A stretch of DNA of 29,248 bases, taken from positions 1 to 29,248 of IMG/VR virus record IMGVR_UViG_3300030106_003261; one strand, given 5' to 3'. Positions within the stretch are counted from its first letter, which is position 1, and each line of letters opens with the position of its first letter. The notes under the pieces are model-generated. The model saw nothing but the letters and a program-made list of their open reading frames with translations, did not search any database and was not told the origin of the DNA. The translations under genes were made by a program, and so were the position numbers. The DNA is from a virus. Positions 801-18,536 of the stretch are shown here, one piece after another.

Positions 801-1009
801 CCCTGATCGAGCAGTTGAAACCGTTGCCTGGTCAGCTCCTCCAGCTCAATGAAGAAGTCCGGGTGACAAAAACTTTGGTGGGTTCATGCGAGCGAGAGCA
901 TATCACGCAGTTCATTCATCAGTCGGAACAGTTGGTTGCGGACATTGAAAACGCCACCTCGGTTCTGTCTGAGCATTTAAGACTGCTGAGAGAGGAGCTG
1001 GACATTTAA
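797..1009 (+). CDS. Small coiled-coil-like helical protein, 70 aa
   Basis: Coupled by ATGA to the tiny membrane-protein gene upstream. The whole sequence is predicted by eye to be helical, with leucine or isoleucine spaced in heptad fashion (LIEQLKPLPGQLLQLNEEV, and a C-terminal SVLSEHLRLLREEL). There is one cysteine near residue 31 and no membrane segment. It is the last gene of the left plus-strand run and ends eight bases before the convergent dioxygenase gene. A partner role with the adjacent membrane protein is possible, but that is inferred only from the overlap. Confidence 0.72.
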   Translation: MTLIEQLKPLPGQLLQLNEEVRVTKTLVGSCEREHITQFIHQSEQLVADIENATSVLSEHLRLLREELDI

Positions 1010-1017
1010 CCCCCTGC

Positions 1018-1731
1018 CTATTGCAGTGCTGCGTATCGCTCAATCAATCGTTTCTTGTCCATCAGCCAAAAGACCAGCAGATATCGGTCCCCGCTATCGA
1101 CAACGAGGCCGCGATGCAGGTTGGTGAAGCTGGGGAAGATCAAGGCGTGGCCGCTAGGCAGCGGACTCAACACTCCGTGGTTGTGAAACTCTGTGCCGCC
1201 GCCCTTGTATTCGTCGGTGTTGAGCGGCACTACAACGCTGATGTCTGAGCTTTCATCGTGATGCCAAGCGCCTTGCTGCTTGTCCTTGGGGTTATAGTTC
1301 GCGATTTGGATTGACGAAACATCTTTGCAATCTCTTTGATACAGCATATTGAATACTGGGTTCAAAATGTTTTGAACGACAAACCACATATTGCGGTACA
1401 GCTCAGGGACGTGCTCCTGCAAAACAATCTCTGGGATCTGTCTTAGCTCGTCCTCATTGTCATTAGGCACAAAAGGTATTTCTTTCTCCATATGCTTAAT
1501 CTCATCGACCAGCATCTTGCAGAACTGTCTGCGGAAAAGCGGCACCCGATACACGTCGGGAAAGATTTTTTTGCAGAGCTGAGACACTGGCGTTCTCGCC
1601 AAGCGATCCACCCCTTCCCTTGCTCGATACTCCGCAATCATCGGCACACTTTCTTGCACCGCCTTGTACAACGGCTGGTTGACGAACCAATGCGATTGCA
1701 TCGATAGCATGTAGTTTTTTAATTGGTACAT
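1018..1731 (-). CDS. 2-oxoglutarate/Fe(II)-dependent dioxygenase-like protein
   Basis: The C-terminal half carries the double-stranded beta-helix signature of 2OG-Fe(II) oxygenases. With the ATG at 1731 as residue 1 (237 aa), the iron ligands are H157-x-D159 in GAWHHDES and H206 in NLHRG. R216, ten residues on in GDRYLLVFW, is the expected 2-oxoglutarate anchor. The GGGTEF and GHALIFP segments are the usual strands between them, as in prolyl-4-hydroxylase-like or PKHD-type enzymes. The N-terminal 120 residues are helical. The family oxidises protein, nucleic-acid or small-molecule substrates; the substrate here is unknown. Start choice is uncertain: the frame extends to a TTG at 1767, which would place the inverted repeat inside the gene, and no start has a clear ribosome binding site. 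The gene is transcribed opposite to the RHH-like gene. Confidence 0.85.
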   Translation of the reverse strand: MYQLKNYMLSMQSHWFVNQPLYKAVQESVPMIAEYRAREGVDRLARTPVSQLCKKIFPDVYRVPLFRRQFCKMLVDEIKHMEKEIPFVPNDNEDELRQIPEIVLQEHVPELYRNMWFVVQNILNPVFNMLYQRDCKDVSSIQIANYNPKDKQQGAWHHDESSDISVVVPLNTDEYKGGGTEFHNHGVLSPLPSGHALIFPSFTNLHRGLVVDSGDRYLLVFWLMDKKRLIERYAALQ

Positions 1732-1759
1732 TTGTGCTATTCTGCACAAAATAGCACAA
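1732..1759. promoter_or_regulatory. Perfect inverted repeat in the divergent intergenic region, probable operator
   Basis: TTGTGCTATT at 1732-1741 and AATAGCACAA at 1750-1759 are exact reverse complements, ten bases each, around an 8-base centre that holds another GCACAA. This gives three copies of the GCACAA half-site. The element lies between the minus-strand dioxygenase and the plus-strand ribbon-helix-helix-like gene at 1786. A weak plus-strand promoter reading (TTGTGC, 17 bases, CACAAT) would be covered by it. RHH proteins typically bind short repeated half-sites and repress their own promoters, so autoregulation is a reasonable inference. It is not a terminator, because no T-run follows on either strand. 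Confidence 0.55.
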
Positions 1760-1785
1760 TTGCTCAACGCTTTTGAGGATTTACC

Positions 1786-1956
1786 ATGTCAACAGATGAA
1801 GTCATTGAGACTAAGCGCAAGTCGTTAGCCATCGATGGCGACACGTACTGGAAGCTGCGCGAGATATGCGCCAAAGAGCGGCGCACGCTGATCATGCAGT
1901 TGCAGCTCTTGATCGAGAATCGGTACGACGAGTTGTTTGAGGATGAGCAGTTTTGA
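1786..1956 (+). CDS. Ribbon-helix-helix-like small DNA-binding protein, 56 aa
   Basis: The ATG at 1786 is preceded by GAGGA at 1775-1779 with six-base spacing. The frame ends in TGA at 1954-1956, overlapping the next gene's ATG as TGATG. The 56-residue product fits the CopG/Arc/MetJ ribbon-helix-helix plan: a short strand (RKSLAIDGD), a first helix (TYWKLREICAKER), a turn (RT), and a second helix (LIMQLQLLIENRYDELF). Length and pattern match phage and antitoxin regulators of this fold. The inverted repeat directly upstream is the natural candidate target. No toxin-like partner is obvious. The call rests on pattern only; a generic small helical protein is the alternative. Confidence 0.65.
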   Translation: MSTDEVIETKRKSLAIDGDTYWKLREICAKERRTLIMQLQLLIENRYDELFEDEQF

Positions 1957-2225
1957 TGAATCTTTTCAACAAAAAGCCAGCGCAAGTCCCGCAATCATAT
2001 CGCCCAATCGCTGAGGCTGGAGAGGTGATTGATCTGTTCGGGCGCATGACCCTGCACCAGCAGGCGGCTTTGTTGCGGTTGTGCAGCCGCAACCTCATGA
2101 TTCAGGTCGATGGTGAGCTGCACATGGGGTACGACTTTGATTGGAACGTCGATGCCGCCATGATTGTCGCGACACCAGCAGAGAGTATGGACTTTCTGTT
2201 AGGCGAGGGAGGCGATCCCTCCTAA
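1956..2225 (+). CDS. Hypothetical protein, 89 aa, coupled to the RHH-like gene
   Basis: The ATG at 1956 shares its A with the upstream TGA stop, so translation is probably coupled. A TTG three bases earlier is the only longer start and is less likely. A helical region around residues 20-50 (GEVIDLFGRMTLHQQAALLRLC) is followed by a strand-rich part (MIQVDGELHMGYDFDW) and an acidic C-terminus. I see no catalytic motif or membrane span. The last 27 bases overlap the end of the convergent minus-strand gene that stops at 2199, with no terminator hairpin between them. It may work with the regulator upstream; no family is recognised. Confidence 0.64.
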   Translation: MNLFNKKPAQVPQSYRPIAEAGEVIDLFGRMTLHQQAALLRLCSRNLMIQVDGELHMGYDFDWNVDAAMIVATPAESMDFLLGEGGDPS

Positions 2226-4676
2226 CGGCCCTCTGAGACGCATAGCAAGCTCTCTGTCGTCCGCTCTCGGCAAAACAATAGCTGACGTAGCAGGATCGAA
2301 ATCACCCATCACAGGCGCTCTGGAGGCGTTTGGCAGGGGGTCAAACATAGAAACGTCTTGCCGCTGAGGCTCTGGCAAAACTTGGGCAGCAGGCGGTGCG
2401 ATTGTTGACACAGGCTCAGGGTCCGGCTGTGCTTCTCGCGCCCTAAGCGAGTCAATAACTTTAAGCATTTCCATCCTTTCTTCGTCTTTGGATGGCTCAG
2501 CTTCTGCCTCTTTTTCTGGCGATATTCCTGTGCGTATGGCCCCTTGGGCGGTAGCAGAAAACATAGGCGTTTGCATTCTTTGCAAAGTTTGACTTACAGC
2601 GTTCATGGCATCATCGCGAGCCTTAACACCCTCTGCGATATCAGCGGCTTTAGCCAAACCTGCTCTACCCAAAAAGTTCGGCGTAACAAGCATCCCTGCG
2701 CGTATAGCAGCACTCATCAGAGTGTAACCACTTGCGGACGGGTTCATTTTTATTTCAGCCCACAGGGTCGGCAAGACATTGGCTCGAAACTCTTTGATGC
2801 GAGCTATCTCTTCAGGACTAAAAACCTTTTCAATAATCCTTCGGTTTTCTGAAAATACATCGTTGTAGTTCTCTACAATCGACTTGCGGGTAATCTCGCC
2901 GCCTTTACCGGCAAAGGCTTTGGTCATAATTCCGTCTTTGAGAAGAGCGAGGAATTGTTGGTAATCATCTGGATCTAAAGACTTTTGTAATTTGTCTAAA
3001 ACAACAGAAACAGCTTGCTTCGGTGCAAATTTGTTTTGCCCGAATAGTTTATTGGCAACTTGAACAGGAGTGTATTGCTCGGTGGAAAGCTGCTCCAGAA
3101 TTGTGTTGGCTGCTCTTTCTTGAGTATTTCTACCGGACCCACGGCCAACAGTAGCCATGTAATCAGCATACAATCCAGTCGCTTGTTTTAACTGATCGAG
3201 AACCTCTTGGTCTCCCGTGATGAACCCTTGCTCAATACCGTTATAAACAGCGTCATCGAGCCTCTCTTTCATCTTTATCAAAGCAAGCTCCTCTGGAGAC
3301 GGGGCGTCTCCAGACGCCCGTTTCGTTCTGGCTTGACCGATAGCTGCTCGCAATCTTTTTTGGTAACCGTGGACGTTTTTCAGCGCCTGATCTTTGAATC
3401 TAGGGTTCTGAGCAATTTTCTTTAATCTGCGAAGTTGTGTTATTTCACGAAACAGCGGCCCATCAACTATTTGGTTTGGAGCAAGAATTGTAGGAACAAT
3501 GTCTAACAGCTCTTGAACTACCTTTTGAACGCCCTCTGCCGTCATCACTGGTGGAGTATCAACGCCCTTAATCACTTCATATAGCGTTGAAGATTCTTCC
3601 TTCAGGCGCTCGGCAGCGCCTGCAATAAGCGATTGTGCTTCTTCAGCAGCAGCACTGGGAATGTTTCCGTAAATCCCAGAAGAATCAATTGTGCCAGCAC
3701 CAAACTCTTCTTGAAGTCGTAAGGCGTCGTTACGGATTTCGGTAAGCTGAGCGTCATCAAAACCGCGAATCATCAGTGTCGCTGGTTCCGATGAGGGCAT
3801 TTGACGAAGTTGATCTTCACGGCCTAGCTGCTCAGTTTGGCGCGGTCCTACACCTTGAGGTGGCGGGGCGGTTTTTTGTCCCACAGTCAAGGGGTACTTA
3901 GATTTAGAAATTACATCGAAAGAAAATCTTGGAAACGCCTCATCGAAAGCTGAACCCCGCCCTATTGCTTGCGTGCCTGCCCGAATGCCTTTGCCCAGTA
4001 ATTTTGCAACGGGAGGTGAGAGCATATCTGCACCAACGCCGATAGCCGTTGATGTGGCTACTTGCTCCCCTATGTCATCTGCCGTTCTTTTTTTCAGCGC
4101 AGTTGCTTCTGGAGTAATGTACGCCTCGCCAGCAATGGCGGCTAACTCTGTTGCAGAGTAAGCAGCCGTGCCTCTTGCGGCGGTTTCTAAAGCGGTTTTG
4201 CCTGCACCTGTAAACTTTGATGCTGGGGCAAATTTAGCAATCTCTCCTACCATGGTATTAAGGTCCATGAAAGTTAGGCCCGGTTTATTGATGTAGTAAG
4301 GAATGTTGTTCCAAACAATAATTGGCAAGCCAAACTCATCGCGGTACTTACCGCCGTACCGAGGATCACCGTCAAAGGCATTGTGAATGATTTCGGCTTT
4401 ACCATAATCATCTCTTGCCAACATCACTTTTAATTTTGTTGAAAGACCCTCGAAAAAACCCGGCGCATCAGCGCCCATGTCTGTCAGCTCTGGAAGAAAA
4501 GGAAACTCGATTGGCGCACCCTCGCCAGTAATAGCTTGGCTGACGGCTGATGGCGCGTTCACGATCATATCAATGACGCTAGGATCTGGCTCAAACTGTT
4601 GTCTTGCAACGTCAGCAGGTGGATCAGACTTTTCCTTTGTGCCCGCATAGCCTTCTGGTAATTTTTCAAGCGGCAT
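2199..4676 (-). CDS. Large hypothetical virion protein, candidate internal/ejection protein, 825 aa
   Basis: This is the last and longest gene of the minus-strand tail block. The N-terminal 150 residues are mixed and contain an aromatic-rich patch (GLPIIVWNNIPYYINKPG). Residues about 150-240 are Ala/Gly-rich helices (TALETAARGTAAYSATELAA) that could interact with membranes. The middle is long amphipathic helix, and the C-terminus is Pro/Glu-rich and disordered. There is no signal peptide and no lysozyme or peptidase motif that I can recognise. In podovirus genomes, very large helical genes distal to the tail nozzle usually encode internal or ejection proteins, so that role is inferred from size and position. 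A tail-fibre role is less likely because beta-repeat structure is lacking. Confidence 0.82.
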   Translation of the reverse strand: MPLEKLPEGYAGTKEKSDPPADVARQQFEPDPSVIDMIVNAPSAVSQAITGEGAPIEFPFLPELTDMGADAPGFFEGLSTKLKVMLARDDYGKAEIIHNAFDGDPRYGGKYRDEFGLPIIVWNNIPYYINKPGLTFMDLNTMVGEIAKFAPASKFTGAGKTALETAARGTAAYSATELAAIAGEAYITPEATALKKRTADDIGEQVATSTAIGVGADMLSPPVAKLLGKGIRAGTQAIGRGSAFDEAFPRFSFDVISKSKYPLTVGQKTAPPPQGVGPRQTEQLGREDQLRQMPSSEPATLMIRGFDDAQLTEIRNDALRLQEEFGAGTIDSSGIYGNIPSAAAEEAQSLIAGAAERLKEESSTLYEVIKGVDTPPVMTAEGVQKVVQELLDIVPTILAPNQIVDGPLFREITQLRRLKKIAQNPRFKDQALKNVHGYQKRLRAAIGQARTKRASGDAPSPEELALIKMKERLDDAVYNGIEQGFITGDQEVLDQLKQATGLYADYMATVGRGSGRNTQERAANTILEQLSTEQYTPVQVANKLFGQNKFAPKQAVSVVLDKLQKSLDPDDYQQFLALLKDGIMTKAFAGKGGEITRKSIVENYNDVFSENRRIIEKVFSPEEIARIKEFRANVLPTLWAEIKMNPSASGYTLMSAAIRAGMLVTPNFLGRAGLAKAADIAEGVKARDDAMNAVSQTLQRMQTPMFSATAQGAIRTGISPEKEAEAEPSKDEERMEMLKVIDSLRAREAQPDPEPVSTIAPPAAQVLPEPQRQDVSMFDPLPNASRAPVMGDFDPATSAIVLPRADDRELAMRLRGPLGGIASLA

Positions 4677-12492: not shown

Positions 12493-13215
12493 TTACCCCC
12501 TATATGGTTCTGGACTGGTGATAGCTTCGACCGTTTCAAGGTTGTGTTTTTTTACCATGCGTGCCAAATCGGAGCGGTCGCACACCACCCACTCACCCTC
12601 TGGATTCGGCATAGCCACCTTCGGATTAGCTAAGCGGTGATAGCCATACAGGCGCTCCTCCAGCTCTACGTTTTGATCGAGCAGTGAGCTGCGTGGGCTG
12701 ACGCCTACGGTGATGCCCATGGCGATCAGCTTACAGAGCCAAAACTCTACGCAAGCGCGACCGGCCTCAGCAAAATGCAGGTTTTTGCGATACGAAAAAT
12801 CCATGCCAAAAAGATCGACGTGGCCAACCTTATGGTAAGCCGCAAACGCAAGTGAGTAGGCGACAGTCGTGTTCATGTACGCGCACCGCTGGTCCTTGAT
12901 CACCTCCTCTAGCGGATACTCAACAAGGCTCGGCACCCGCTCATCTAGCTGACAGGTGTAAATCGGTTTGTCGTAAGTCGGCAGCAGCCGGCGCATGACT
13001 TCGGTTTGGTTGCCTGCGTCGTCGCTATCAAGAAACCGACTGGCCGGGTCGAGCATGAACACCCTGTCGCAATCAAACACGGACAAAGCCGAGTTGATCG
13101 TCCAGACCTCATCCCACGTCCTGCTGTTTTCAACGCCAATGACATAATCAATCTGAGAGGCACCCAGACCGATAATCGCTACTTTTTTGCCTGCTAACTC
13201 TGCAAGTTTGTCCAC
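12493..13215 (-). CDS. Rossmann-fold protein of DUF115/glycosyltransferase-like type, 240 aa
   Basis: Starts with GTG at 13215, overlapping the upstream TAG as TAGTG. An N-terminal strand and glycine loop (KKVAIIGLGASQIDYV) is the classic Rossmann nucleotide-binding start. A second strand and acidic end (CDRVFMLDP) and a later GHVDLFGMDFSY follow the plan of the DUF115/MptE-like and sialyltransferase-like Rossmann families, where such segments bind a nucleotide or nucleotide-sugar. No NAD-type GxGxxG is complete. The rest includes a helical AYMNTTVAYSLAFAAYH and a basic C-terminus. It is an enzyme-like gene inside the tail-adaptor cluster, so it could modify a virion protein or glycan. Substrate and activity are not evident. 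Confidence 0.78.
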   Translation of the reverse strand: MDKLAELAGKKVAIIGLGASQIDYVIGVENSRTWDEVWTINSALSVFDCDRVFMLDPASRFLDSDDAGNQTEVMRRLLPTYDKPIYTCQLDERVPSLVEYPLEEVIKDQRCAYMNTTVAYSLAFAAYHKVGHVDLFGMDFSYRKNLHFAEAGRACVEFWLCKLIAMGITVGVSPRSSLLDQNVELEERLYGYHRLANPKVAMPNPEGEWVVCDRSDLARMVKKHNLETVEAITSPEPYRG

Positions 13216-14880: not shown

Positions 14881-15556
14881 TTGTCTTCTCGGGGGCGTAC
14901 AGGTTGTCGAATACTTTATTCACGTCGAGAGTGTAGTCTAAATCGGATTTGCTGTAATGGATATGCTGCGACGGCTTAAAATCTGGCGCCCCTTCGCCTA
15001 CCGCAAACCAAGCCGGATGAGTGACCCTGACTCTGTTGTTGGGCAGCGCCACAATGTTGCCTGTCCAGTTCCCTGCCTCAAGCAACTGCATGACGTGGCT
15101 CTGTTTGTGCTGAGCCGGGTCGTCACCAATCTCGCTTTCCGCATAGTCCACGGTGAACAGGTATTTTGCTGGGTAAAACTCGCCATCGATTTTTGCAATC
15201 CATGGGCAAGGCGTGCATCGATCTAACACATATACTGAGTGGTGATGCGAAGAACAATCCCACGGTTGAGCAGCCCAGACAGGCATTGGATCAGGCCAAC
15301 CTTCGTAGTCTGCATCACCTGCCAAAGCAGTGATTGGCATTCTTGCCCACATGGCTCCGCCATGCACATTCGGCTCATCATCCACACACTCTGCGCCCGT
15401 GAATATGACCTGAAACGACAAACACCTTGTCGGCATGGTTGTAACAGCAATAACCATGGCGTGGAGAAATTCGCCATGGTAACGCTCATGGTTGACAGTG
15501 TATTCGCGCCGCACCCACGCTTTGAAGTGTGGGATGTTGCTTTGCAGATACGCCAT
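14861..15556 (-). CDS. Hypothetical phage protein, aromatic and His-rich, 231 aa
   Basis: The start at 15556 overlaps the upstream TAA as TAATG. The sequence opens AYLQSNIPHFKAWVRREYTV and has many aromatic and histidine residues, including SSHHHSVYVLDRCTPCPW with a CTPC pair. The middle is strand-like with WDCSS and IDGEFYPAKYLF. The C-terminus is highly basic (TNGRKRK). The pattern resembles a protein found next to gp4-like genes in marine podoviruses, but the function is unknown. The C-x-x-C could be redox or metal binding, without supporting residues to decide. It is probably virion-associated given its position. Confidence 0.77.
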   Translation of the reverse strand: MAYLQSNIPHFKAWVRREYTVNHERYHGEFLHAMVIAVTTMPTRCLSFQVIFTGAECVDDEPNVHGGAMWARMPITALAGDADYEGWPDPMPVWAAQPWDCSSHHHSVYVLDRCTPCPWIAKIDGEFYPAKYLFTVDYAESEIGDDPAQHKQSHVMQLLEAGNWTGNIVALPNNRVRVTHPAWFAVGEGAPDFKPSQHIHYSKSDLDYTLDVNKVFDNLYAPEKTNGRKRK

Positions 15557-15792
15557 TAGCGCCCGTAAAGGCCACTATTTTTAGACGAGGGTTTCGTAAA
15601 ACCGACGTTACCACCTTTTTTCATGCCCATGGGTTTTTTGATGGTGCCGCCTTTCGTCATACCCATGGGCTTTTTGATCGTGCCACCCTTGGTCATGCCG
15701 GTTGGCATCTTCATTTTTTTCATGGTGCCACCCTTGGTCATGCCACGCTTTTTCACGGGCATACCTTTCGTCATCATTTTATGTCCAGCCAT
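15556..15792 (-). CDS. Lys/Met/Gly tandem-repeat protein, 78 aa
   Basis: I start it at the ATG at 15792, which has GAGGA seven bases upstream; the frame is open further but unsupported. The product is almost wholly made of units of the form GMTKGGTIKKPM: two near-perfect 12-residue copies, one longer variant (GMTKGGTMKKMKMPT) and partial units at each end (MTKGMPVKKR and GMKKGGNV). It is extremely basic, with no acidic residues in the repeat and no hydrophobic core, so it is probably disordered. Such proteins occur in small basic gene clusters of marine phages. Binding to DNA, RNA or an acidic scaffold is inferred from charge only. Confidence 0.78.
   Translation of the reverse strand: MAGHKMMTKGMPVKKRGMTKGGTMKKMKMPTGMTKGGTIKKPMGMTKGGTIKKPMGMKKGGNVGFTKPSSKNSGLYGR
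15612..15778. repeat. Coding tandem repeats of about 36 bp in the Lys/Met/Gly protein gene
   Basis: Units read on the plus strand as CCCATGGGYTTTTTGATSG followed by TGCCRCCYTTBGTCAT, repeated about twice in full with further diverged copies. The unit is a multiple of three, so copy number can change in frame. It is a coding repeat and not an origin or CRISPR array. Confidence 0.7.
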
Positions 15793-15803
15793 GACAGTTT
15801 CCT

Positions 15804-16163
15804 CTAGGCGCGAGGGACTCGCGTTTTCTTTTGCCTGCTCGGCATGATGGCGCCGCACCCACGACTTTGCACCATCGTGATGGCGCCACCGTTACGAGCA
15901 AATGTTGCAACATTTGTGGGCTTACCGCCCACCCCTTGTTTTTTGGATCTTTTGCGACGAACGGCTGAGGCAATTTGTTTTTTGCTCATGCGGCTGGCTT
16001 GGTCAGCGGGAACACATTTTGGATAACCACGCCTCGAATCTTTCGCGCTTTTTCTCCCACACGGCTCGAAGCCGCCGCCTTCTTTGGGAGCCGAGATGTC
16101 AACCCAGTTGCCACCCTTGCCCTTGCCAAACCACTTTTTTAGTCCGCCTTGTGGCTTAGCCAC
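15804..16163 (-). CDS. Small basic phage protein, DUF5872-like, 119 aa
   Basis: I use the GTG at 16163, which overlaps the upstream stop by eight bases and gives the N-terminus VAKPQGGLKKWFGKG. An upstream GTG at 16214 would add a sequence that looks unlike the family. The order KPQGGLKKWF, NWVDISAPK, EPCGRKSAK, YPKCVPADQASRMSKKQ, QGVGGKPTN is a family I associate with marine phages and algal viruses (probably DUF5872; not searched). It has four cysteines and an extreme positive charge. The last 23 residues repeat the end of the upstream neighbour (RGCGAIMPS, QKKTRVPR). Function is unknown; a nucleic-acid-binding or virion role is likely from charge. Confidence 0.75.
   Translation of the reverse strand: MAKPQGGLKKWFGKGKGGNWVDISAPKEGGGFEPCGRKSAKDSRRGYPKCVPADQASRMSKKQIASAVRRKRSKKQGVGGKPTNVATFARNGGAITMVQSRGCGAIMPSRQKKTRVPRA
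15807..15875. repeat. Copy 2 of a shared C-terminal tag (partner at 16159-16227)
   Basis: Encodes the last 23 residues of the 119-aa protein. Compared with the copy at the end of the neighbouring 120-aa gene, 20 of 23 residues agree (RGCGAIMPS and QKKTRVPR are common). The DNA copies have diverged visibly, mostly at third positions, so the duplication is not recent or is under protein-level selection. Confidence 0.75.
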
Positions 16164-16518
16164 GGGGAACTCGCGTCTTCTTCTGCTTGCTCGGCATGAT
16201 TGCCCCGCAGCCACGGCCTTGCACCATTACGCTGCCGCCAATATTTAATCGCTTGGCCATACTCTTGGCGATGGCTGTTCCGCGCTTTCGCTCGTAGCCG
16301 CTGAGCTTTCCGTCTTTGTTCAAATCACTTTTTTGCGGGTCAAGTGTGACCCCGCCGCCGATTCTGCCTGAATACGTTCCGCCCATTCGCTTGTACTCCT
16401 GAACCATCCAGCCGTTTGCGTAGGCCGATGGGTACACATCGAATTTTGCCTTCGCCTTCGCCTTCGCTTTTTTATAAAGACTGGGATTTGCTACGTTGTC
16501 TGGAATGTCTGAAGCCAT
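16156..16518 (-). CDS. Small basic protein with an EF-hand-type loop, 120 aa
   Basis: The ATG at 16518 overlaps the upstream TAA as TAATG. Residues 13-48 form a Lys/Ala-rich helix and a conserved-looking SAYANGWMVQEYKRMGG. Residues 65-76 read DLNKDGKLSGYE, which fits the canonical calcium-binding EF-hand loop (ligand positions D65, N67, D69, S73, E76, with the Gly at position six). Only one such loop is present, so the site could pair between monomers or be degenerate. Residues 98-120 are the RGCGAIMPS...QKKTRVPR tag also present at the end of the next gene. The protein is strongly basic outside the loop. Function is unknown. Confidence 0.78.
   Translation of the reverse strand: MASDIPDNVANPSLYKKAKAKAKAKFDVYPSAYANGWMVQEYKRMGGTYSGRIGGGVTLDPQKSDLNKDGKLSGYERKRGTAIAKSMAKRLNIGGSVMVQGRGCGAIMPSKQKKTRVPRG
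16159..16227. repeat. Copy 1 of a shared C-terminal tag (partner at 15807-15875)
   Basis: Encodes the last 23 residues of the EF-hand-containing protein, from MVQ to the final RG. Its sister copy lies 352 bases downstream on the transcribed strand, at the end of the next gene. In this copy the tag overlaps the GTG start of the neighbouring gene, so the overlap region is read in two frames for its last eight bases. Confidence 0.75.
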
Positions 16519-17845: not shown

Positions 17846-18139
17846 TCACCAGTTTTTACACGACCAGTAACTTGCCGCGAAAACATCTTTCTTCTTCTCT
17901 ACCGCATCACAGTTGTGTCTGGCACGAAAGTTGCGCCGTCGACCTGGGTTGTCACGCCGAATTTCCATTTTCGGATCTCCGAAACGCACAATTTTTATTT
18001 GATCGCCTTTTTTCGCTAGGACCGCAAACTTCTTTTTCTCGCCGGGCGTTCTTTTTTGTTGGTTGTAGCCAGGAAACGACTCGCCCCGATAGACAAGTCT
18101 TCCCGCCGGCGTTCTTCTCACATCAGAGGTATCAGCCAT
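17846..18139 (-). CDS. Small basic phage protein with FRARH...WSCK signature, 97 aa
   Basis: The start lies in an eight-base overlap with the upstream gene (ATGGCTGA). The sequence has an N-terminal RRTPAGRLVYRGESFPGY, a KKFAVLAKKGDQIKIVRFGD strand region, and a C-terminal RRNFRARHNCD...YWSCKNW. This is a recurring family in marine phages and large algal viruses that I recognise by its FGDPxM and FRARHxC..WSCKxW elements, though I cannot give its number with certainty. Two cysteines and a histidine near the end could bind metal. High Arg/Lys content suggests a nucleic-acid-associated role. No activity is known to me. Confidence 0.8.
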   Translation of the reverse strand: MADTSDVRRTPAGRLVYRGESFPGYNQQKRTPGEKKKFAVLAKKGDQIKIVRFGDPKMEIRRDNPGRRRNFRARHNCDAVEKKKDVFAASYWSCKNW

Positions 18140-18536
18140 ACGATTTGATCAGCTCCAACACAATCATGTACGTGTCACCACTTGAATGACCAACGGTGGT
18201 GAAATCAAGATCGCCAGTTTTCCCGCTACCCGCATTGTTCGGTATGCCCGAAAAATCTGAGTAATCGTGATAGCCGTTTGAATCTTCGCTTAAACCAATC
18301 GCCAACACGTTTGAGGTGGCATCGAACTCGATCTTGACGCTGAGGCCCGTACACTGCCACCAAATTTTATTTATGGTGACAGCCGAGCACGACAATCCTG
18401 CCGAGTTGCTGGTCAGTGCTGAAACGTCTACTTTTTTGACTGCCGATTCACCCGTGCCATCACTAGCATTGGTGAACTTCAGGACGGCTTTGCGCTCGCC
18501 GTCCTGAATGGTTTGGCTTGTGACTGCATCAGCCAT
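18132..18536 (-). CDS. Beta-rich structural protein, 134 aa
   Basis: The ATG at 18536 has GGGAG about six bases upstream, and the gene starts 12 bases after the preceding stop. The sequence opens MADAVTSQTIQDGERKAVLK and continues as Ser/Thr/Gly-rich strands with a KIWWQCTGLSVKIEFDA core. It fits a small conserved phage structural protein often found near the capsid or decoration genes, in which the 'IQDG-x-R-K-A-V-L-K-F-T' start is typical. The C-terminus (DTYMIVLELIKSYG) is hydrophobic and strand-like. A capsid-decoration or head-completion role is inferred from position and composition. Confidence 0.78.
   Translation of the reverse strand: MADAVTSQTIQDGERKAVLKFTNASDGTGESAVKKVDVSALTSNSAGLSCSAVTINKIWWQCTGLSVKIEFDATSNVLAIGLSEDSNGYHDYSDFSGIPNNAGSGKTGDLDFTTVGHSSGDTYMIVLELIKSYG

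What the first reader, a model, noticed from the sequence alone, without database searches (positions are those of the whole stretch)
1018..2225. Compact cassette: RHH-like regulator, perfect operator-like palindrome, divergent 2OG-Fe(II) dioxygenase
Seen: a 10-bp-arm perfect inverted repeat (1732-1759) with a third half-site lies between a 56-residue RHH-like gene (1786-1956) and a minus-strand dioxygenase gene with the H-x-D...H...R site. Known: RHH proteins bind short repeats and often repress divergent genes. Inference: the phage regulates a modifying oxygenase through this operator, separately from the late genes. A self-regulated dioxygenase cassette at the early/late boundary could be a nucleobase- or host-protein-modifying switch.
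Basis: partly seen in the sequence, partly recalled or inferred. Interest (0 to 1): 0.62.

Follow-up and report, generated by a model that had tools for sequence, protein, structure and literature searches.

The report
Regulator–hydroxylase gene module in marine phages
A small gene module, conserved across a group of uncultured phages, pairs a likely DNA-binding repressor (with a small partner protein) with a divergently transcribed enzyme of the lysine-hydroxylase type; the striking DNA palindrome between them is peculiar to this one phage, while a 10-base-phased repeat recurs in many of its relatives.

Summary
The anatomy is real: palindrome TTGTGCTATT-N8-AATAGCACAA at 1732-1759 lies between a 56-aa Arc/CopG-like protein (1786-1956 +) and a minus-strand 2OG-Fe(II) oxygenase (1018-1731). 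The perfect palindrome is private: no exact match in 2.9 million viral contigs. Inference: the RHH protein binds these repeats and represses its own operon and the oxygenase. The oxygenase matches collagen lysyl hydroxylases (mimivirus L230, human LH3) with all five Fe/2OG residues conserved, so protein lysyl hydroxylation is favoured over nucleobase modification. The RHH fold rests on weak transitive profile evidence; AlphaFold of the single sequence did not show it. Binding, repression and substrate are untested.

The parts
1018..1731 (-). 2OG-Fe(II) dioxygenase, procollagen-lysyl-hydroxylase-like; 237 aa counting the Met of the ATG at 1731-1729; Fe ligands H157, D159, H206 and 2OG residues Y146, R216 (numbering with Met)
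   Evidence: phrog_61 E 1.6e-29; profile hits mimivirus L230 9.5e-14 and human LH3 7e-12; Foldseek L230/LH3 E about 8e-10; catalytic residues invariant in 20 relatives with spacing as in L230 except D-to-H (47 vs 50)
1732..1759 (.). perfect 28-bp inverted repeat TTGTGCTATT-N8-AATAGCACAA (private to this phage)
   Evidence: no exact match elsewhere
1744..1759 (+). 10-bp-phased direct repeat GCACAA-AATA-GCACAA, the copy here of the recurrent operator-like signature YACAA-N5-YACAA; the only such pair in the window
1732..1760 (+). putative sigma70-type promoter of the regulator: -35 TTGTGC (1732-1737), 17 bp, -10 CACAAT (1755-1760); poor match here, better in relatives
   Evidence: not found by the stricter scan
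1739..1767 (-). putative sigma70-type promoter of the dioxygenase: -35 TTGAGC (1767-1762), 17 bp, -10 CAGAAT (1744-1739), 7 nt from the ATG, so a leaderless transcript if real
   Evidence: not found by the stricter scan
1786..1956 (+). 56-aa Arc/CopG-like (RHH-like) putative regulator
   Evidence: PHROG 3180 'Arc-like repressor' matched by 13 of 17 family members, best E 2.4e-5; same PHROG matched by CopG 1.8e-4; core R-K-S-L-A-[IV]-D...C...Q-L...I conserved in 65 aligned sequences
1956..2225 (+). 89-aa partner protein of unknown fold (PQSY...LHQQAALLRL.SRN...MGY), start codon overlapping the regulator stop by 1 nt
   Evidence: downstream of the regulator on the same strand in 74 of 75 distinct cases; no Pfam, PHROG or PDB match

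Best explanation
A conserved three-gene module of an uncultured phage clade related to HTVC023P-type podoviruses. The RHH-like protein, made with its coupled partner, binds 10-bp-phased YACAA/TTGTR half-sites in the shared gap. The sites overlap promoter elements in both directions (in the window the second half-site covers the putative regulator -10, the first the spacer and the edge of the putative oxygenase -10), so binding would repress its own operon and the oxygenase. When repression is lifted or outcompeted, the oxygenase is made, here probably from a leaderless mRNA, and hydroxylates a protein, most likely on lysine. Shown: gene conservation and order, half-site enrichment and phasing, oxygenase family and catalytic residues. 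Inferred: RHH fold, DNA binding, repression, promoter use, lysine substrate.
For: Divergent pairing in 83 of 95 distinct viral oxygenase loci with enough flank, regulator nearby in 11 more; coupled partner in 74/75. Half-site enrichment 58 vs 17.3 (sd 3.5); 10-bp direct phasing in 10/25 representatives vs 0.08 expected, at several different offsets from the oxygenase start. Interlocked 17-bp-spaced sigma70-like elements in the nearer relatives, with the oxygenase -10 6-7 nt from its ATG in most. Arc/CopG-like PHROG match. Lysyl hydroxylase profile and fold matches, Fe/2OG residues invariant.
Against: AF2 of the single regulator sequence gave no beta strand and its Foldseek search found nothing significant; direct profile comparison with CopG or Arc was not significant. 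15 of 25 representatives have no exact 10-bp pair. In the window the two promoters score no better than shuffles (p 0.60 and 0.18) and the strict scan finds none. In 11 loci other genes separate regulator and oxygenase, so shared control is not obligatory. Several more distant relatives lack an oxygenase promoter near the ATG. The representatives are related sequences, so the shuffle-based significance is overstated.
Confidence: 0.55

Rival explanations
1. The regulator and its partner form an autoregulated toxin-antitoxin-like pair; the divergent oxygenase is merely a long-term neighbour with its own promoter.
For: RHH antitoxins are commonly encoded just upstream of a coupled small gene (general knowledge); partner coupling 74/75, start/stop overlap. 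In 11 loci the oxygenase is separated from the regulator by other genes; in L050 it has a hairpin with a T run just upstream.
Against: The partner matches no toxin family or any other; divergent adjacency with the oxygenase persists in 83/95 loci; half-sites lie in the shared gap.
Confidence: 0.2
2. The conserved TTGTR/YACAA blocks are mainly promoter hexamers (TTGnnn -35, TACAAT -10) of overlapping divergent promoters, and the 56-aa protein acts elsewhere.
For: Many blocks coincide with -35/-10 positions at 17-bp spacing.
Against: One copy of each 10-bp pair usually lies in the spacer, which sigma70 does not read; the 10-bp phasing recurs at several offsets and exceeds shuffles about a hundredfold; in most of 14 loci examined the only YACAA-N5-YACAA pair is in this gap.
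Confidence: 0.2
3. The oxygenase hydroxylates nucleobases or a free metabolite rather than a protein.
For: Distant lysine halogenases HalA/HalB, which act on free amino acids, appear among the fold matches.
Against: Much stronger matches to lysyl hydroxylases L230/LH3, then prolyl hydroxylases; no nucleic-acid oxygenase family hit in Pfam; best PHROG is the general phage 2OG-Fe(II) oxygenase family 61.
Confidence: 0.15
4. The perfect palindrome 1732-1759 itself is the functional operator in this phage, a recent optimisation of the ancestral sites.
For: Contains both 10-bp-phased copies plus an inverted TTGTGC on the putative regulator -35; short divergent gap.
Against: No relative has it; one such repeat per window is expected by chance.
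Confidence: 0.25

Closest known systems
Arc/CopG-type ribbon-helix-helix repressors (P22 Arc, pMV158 CopG; PHROG 3180)
   Same: Size (56 aa), a short basic-polar N-terminal segment followed by predicted helix, short phased half-sites in its own control region
   Different: Only weak profile similarity; invariant Cys28 and RKSLA core; coupled to a unique partner; direct profile comparison with Arc or CopG not significant
Procollagen lysyl hydroxylase domain (mimivirus L230, human LH3/PLOD3)
   Same: Jelly-roll fold match, Y-(11)-H-x-D...H-(10)-R Fe/2OG residues conserved with the same spacing within each segment
   Different: 24-28% identity; no glycosyltransferase domain; the position of the L230 dimer leucine L873 is Phe (or Ala); own N-terminal ~60 aa; substrate unknown
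2OG-Fe(II) oxygenases of T7-like Pseudomonas phages (phi-2, SVOphi44) and PHROG 61
   Same: Same catalytic domain, 34-39% identity, in the early or replication region in the two records viewed
   Different: No RHH gene or partner found; there a co-oriented gene among early genes, not divergent
HTVC023P-type pelagiphages (HTVC023P, HTVC027P, 023Pt_psg01)
   Same: Related terminase (57-62% identity) and several 2OG-Fe(II) oxygenases reported as auxiliary metabolic genes (PMC9599517)
   Different: Their oxygenases match this one only weakly (E about 1e-4) and no RHH/partner homologue was found

Membership tests
Ribbon-helix-helix (Arc/CopG) repressor | Significant sequence-profile match to an RHH family | tested here: inconclusive
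   PHROG 3180 best 2.4e-5 among members, 0.024 for the window protein; CopG hits the same PHROG; no Pfam RHH hit; Arc/CopG direct comparison not significant
Ribbon-helix-helix (Arc/CopG) repressor | beta-strand plus two helices, intertwined dimer | tested here: inconclusive
   AF2 monomer without alignment: helices 3-13 and 18-50, no strand; the strand of an RHH forms in the dimer, which could not be modelled
Ribbon-helix-helix (Arc/CopG) repressor | Phased short half-sites in its own control region | tested here: met
   10-bp-phased YACAA, 10/25 representatives vs 0.08 expected
Ribbon-helix-helix (Arc/CopG) repressor | Sequence-specific DNA binding and repression | not testable with these tools
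   needs EMSA, footprinting or reporter assay
2OG-Fe(II) dioxygenase superfamily | HxD...H Fe triad and Arg for 2OG in a jelly-roll fold | tested here: met
Collagen lysyl hydroxylase (PLOD/L230) | Fe/2OG residues H825, D827, H877, R887, Y814 of L230 | tested here: met
   equivalents invariant in 20 sequences with matching spacing
Collagen lysyl hydroxylase (PLOD/L230) | Dimer-locking leucine (L230 L873), four residues before the distal His | tested here: not met
   Phe (or Ala in L047) at that position (alignment compared)
Collagen lysyl hydroxylase (PLOD/L230) | Hydroxylates X-Lys-Gly in collagen-like sequence | not testable with these tools
   no assay; a Lys-rich X-Lys-Gly repeat protein at 15556-15792 is only a lead
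Type II toxin-antitoxin module with RHH antitoxin | Downstream partner belongs to a known toxin family | tested here: not met
   no Pfam, PHROG or PDB match for the partner; a new toxin family is not excluded

The most novel reading that the evidence does not exclude
A dedicated phage circuit in which an RHH protein plus a coupled partner of a new family acts as a convergence-zone switch: early rightward transcription makes the repressor pair and antisense to the oxygenase, late leftward transcription makes antisense to the repressor pair and sense for the oxygenase, which then hydroxylates lysines of a virion protein (for instance the X-Lys-Gly repeat protein): a phage-encoded protein lysyl hydroxylase with its own control.
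Probability: 0.12. Interest if true: 0.75.

Novelty: new variant of a known kind. Interest (0 to 1): 0.42.

Why it matters
2OG-Fe(II) oxygenases are among the common unexplained 'auxiliary' genes of marine phages. A conserved module that ties one to a dedicated regulator, with a defined candidate operator and a clear lysyl-hydroxylase kinship, turns the question of what they modify into specific experiments (EMSA, hydroxylysine mass spectrometry). The partner protein is a new, highly conserved family with no match in 50,697 phage records.

Tried and rejected
Perfect palindrome as a conserved operator: rejected, private to this phage. A conserved perfect 5-bp-arm dyad (TTGTR-N8-YACAA): looked good by eye but not above shuffles (4 vs 1.9 expected). 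Terminator reading of the palindrome: no T run and not reported by the scan. hhalign with single Arc or CopG sequences: no signal. Literature search for RHH with phage dioxygenase: nothing. Lys-rich repeat protein as substrate: present in 14 of 22 contigs of this phage group and 0 of 4 distant isolates, but low-complexity and confounded by relatedness; kept as a lead only.

Full report
WHAT IS THERE. The window is a linear 29,248-base viral fragment. Its terminase is 57-62% identical to those of HTVC023P, HTVC027P, 023Pt_psg01 and DSL-LC04, with portal, major head protein and endolysin recognised. Small + strand genes end at 1009; the structural and packaging genes run leftwards from about 29163 to 2199. 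Between them lie the minus-strand oxygenase (1018-1731), the 54-bp gap, the 56-aa regulator (1786-1956) and an 89-aa partner (1956-2225). The oxygenase is tail-to-tail with the early genes (8-bp gap) and the partner overlaps the last structural gene tail-to-tail by 27 bp. In relatives the module likewise sits between the structural operon and a region with a PDDEXK-like protein and, in L050, a Toprim/VapE-type replication protein, so 'early/late boundary' is a fair description.

THE PALINDROME. TTGTGCTATT-CTGCACAA-AATAGCACAA at 1732-1759 is exact and abuts the oxygenase ATG (1731-1729). Repeats of this quality occur about once per window by chance (Markov mean 0.97; 4 counted at 3 distinct places). 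It is absent from 2.9 million viral contigs as an exact pattern, and the first ~50 relatives show no dyad of arm 7 or more at that place.

WHAT IS CONSERVED: GENES. Oxygenase-based and regulator-based scans of viral contigs gave several hundred candidate stretches. Scored by profile HMMs on distinct sequences with enough flank, 83 of 95 uncultured-virus oxygenase loci in which regulator or partner was seen have the regulator adjacent and divergent, 11 have it elsewhere in the locus (in L050 a run of small genes intervenes) and one (L204) shows the partner but no regulator hit. Seven further loci show neither: L044 (short flank), two Pseudomonas phages and four cellular-genome contigs. The partner follows the regulator on the same strand in 74 of 75, usually with start/stop overlap. 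No homologue of regulator or partner was found in 50,697 phage records, while the oxygenase domain has distant relatives in 192, mostly Pseudomonas phages. Ascertainment caveat: many loci were recruited by the regulator itself; the oxygenase-recruited loci show the same arrangement.

WHAT IS CONSERVED: DNA. In 25 intergenic regions chosen to be under 80% identical to each other, YACAA/TTGTR half-sites number 58 against 17.3 (sd 3.5) in dinucleotide shuffles. Direct pairs 10 bp apart occur in 10 of 25 regions against 0.08 expected; no other spacing from 5 to 15 exceeds 1. The pairs lie at different offsets from the oxygenase start (13/23, 2/12, 19/29, 15/25, 27/37, 5/15/25), which argues for repeated maintenance of the phasing rather than one inherited sequence. 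The window pair is GCACAAAATAGCACAA (1744-1759), the only YACAA-N5-YACAA in the window. In the nearer relatives the gap can be read as two interlocked sigma70-like promoters with 17-bp spacers on both strands, the oxygenase -10 ending 6-7 nt before its ATG with no clear Shine-Dalgarno. These promoters are weak in the window itself (shuffle p 0.60 and 0.18; combined over representatives 5e-6 and 0.006), the strict scan finds none in the window, and several distant relatives do not show the oxygenase promoter. Because the representatives share ancestry, these p-values are optimistic.

THE REGULATOR. R11-K12-S13-L14-A15-[IV]16-D17, C28, R33, I36, Q38-L39 and I43 are invariant or nearly so. It matches PHROG 3180 (Arc-like repressor): 0.024 for the window protein, 13 of 17 members match, best 2.4e-5, and the solved RHH protein CopG matches the same PHROG at 1.8e-4. 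Against: no Pfam RHH hit, no PDB profile hit, no direct profile match to Arc or CopG, and a single-sequence AF2 model without a strand. RHH membership is therefore likely but not shown.

THE OXYGENASE. The profile of 20 relatives finds mimivirus L230 (9.5e-14) and human LH3 (7e-12) in the PDB; the AF2 model (mean pLDDT 63, catalytic core better, N-terminal 61 residues poor) finds the same by Foldseek (E about 8e-10, TM 0.65 on L230), ahead of prolyl hydroxylases at about 1e-5. L230 uses H825, D827, H877 for Fe and Y814, R887 for 2OG (PMC5802723); the phage family has Y145, H156, D158, H205, R215 (alignment numbering, Met not counted) invariant, with the 11-, 2- and 10-residue spacings kept and 47 instead of 50 between D and H. 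The collagen-type dimer leucine L873 corresponds to Phe or Ala, so it should not be called a collagen lysyl hydroxylase, though it probably works like one chemically.

MECHANISM. Best reading: autorepression plus repression of the oxygenase through phased half-sites overlapping both promoters. The tail-to-tail layout, with no spacer for terminators, also means early read-through would be antisense to the oxygenase and late read-through sense for it; this is inference from orientation only. Substrate unknown; a Lys-rich X-Lys-Gly repeat protein (15556-15792) is a lead.

NOVELTY. Autoregulated divergent RHH units are an old idea, and 2OG oxygenases in HTVC023P-type phages are known (PMC9599517). 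The specific three-gene module, the partner family and the lysyl-hydroxylase kinship of the phage enzyme were not found described in the papers searched.

Noticed in passing
window 15556-15792 (-) and neighbours 15804-16518 (-): Cluster of small Lys-rich proteins; one with repeats GMTKGGTIKKP (several X-Lys-Gly sites), found in 14 of 22 contigs of this phage group and 0 of 4 distant isolates.
   Followed up: partly
window 1956-2225: 89-aa partner of a new, highly conserved family (LHQQAALLRL.SRN...MGY), absent from Pfam, PHROGs, the PDB and 50,697 phage records.
   Followed up: yes
window 1009-1018 and 2199-2225: Both junctions of the module with its neighbours are tail-to-tail with no room for terminators, so convergent transcripts should overlap.
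   Followed up: partly
L050 3890-3965: In an AT-rich sister clade a hairpin with T run, after small genes between regulator and oxygenase, precedes the oxygenase promoter region.
   Followed up: no
window 18478-18508 and 3292-3314: Two other perfect inverted repeats with arms of 10 bp or more (18478-18508 has 11-bp arms with a 9-bp loop, near the start of gene 18132-18536).
   Followed up: no
window 12493-13215 (-): 240-aa protein (AIIGLGASQIDYVIGVENSRTWDEVWTINSA...) of uncertain function among structural genes, no PHROG match.
   Followed up: no
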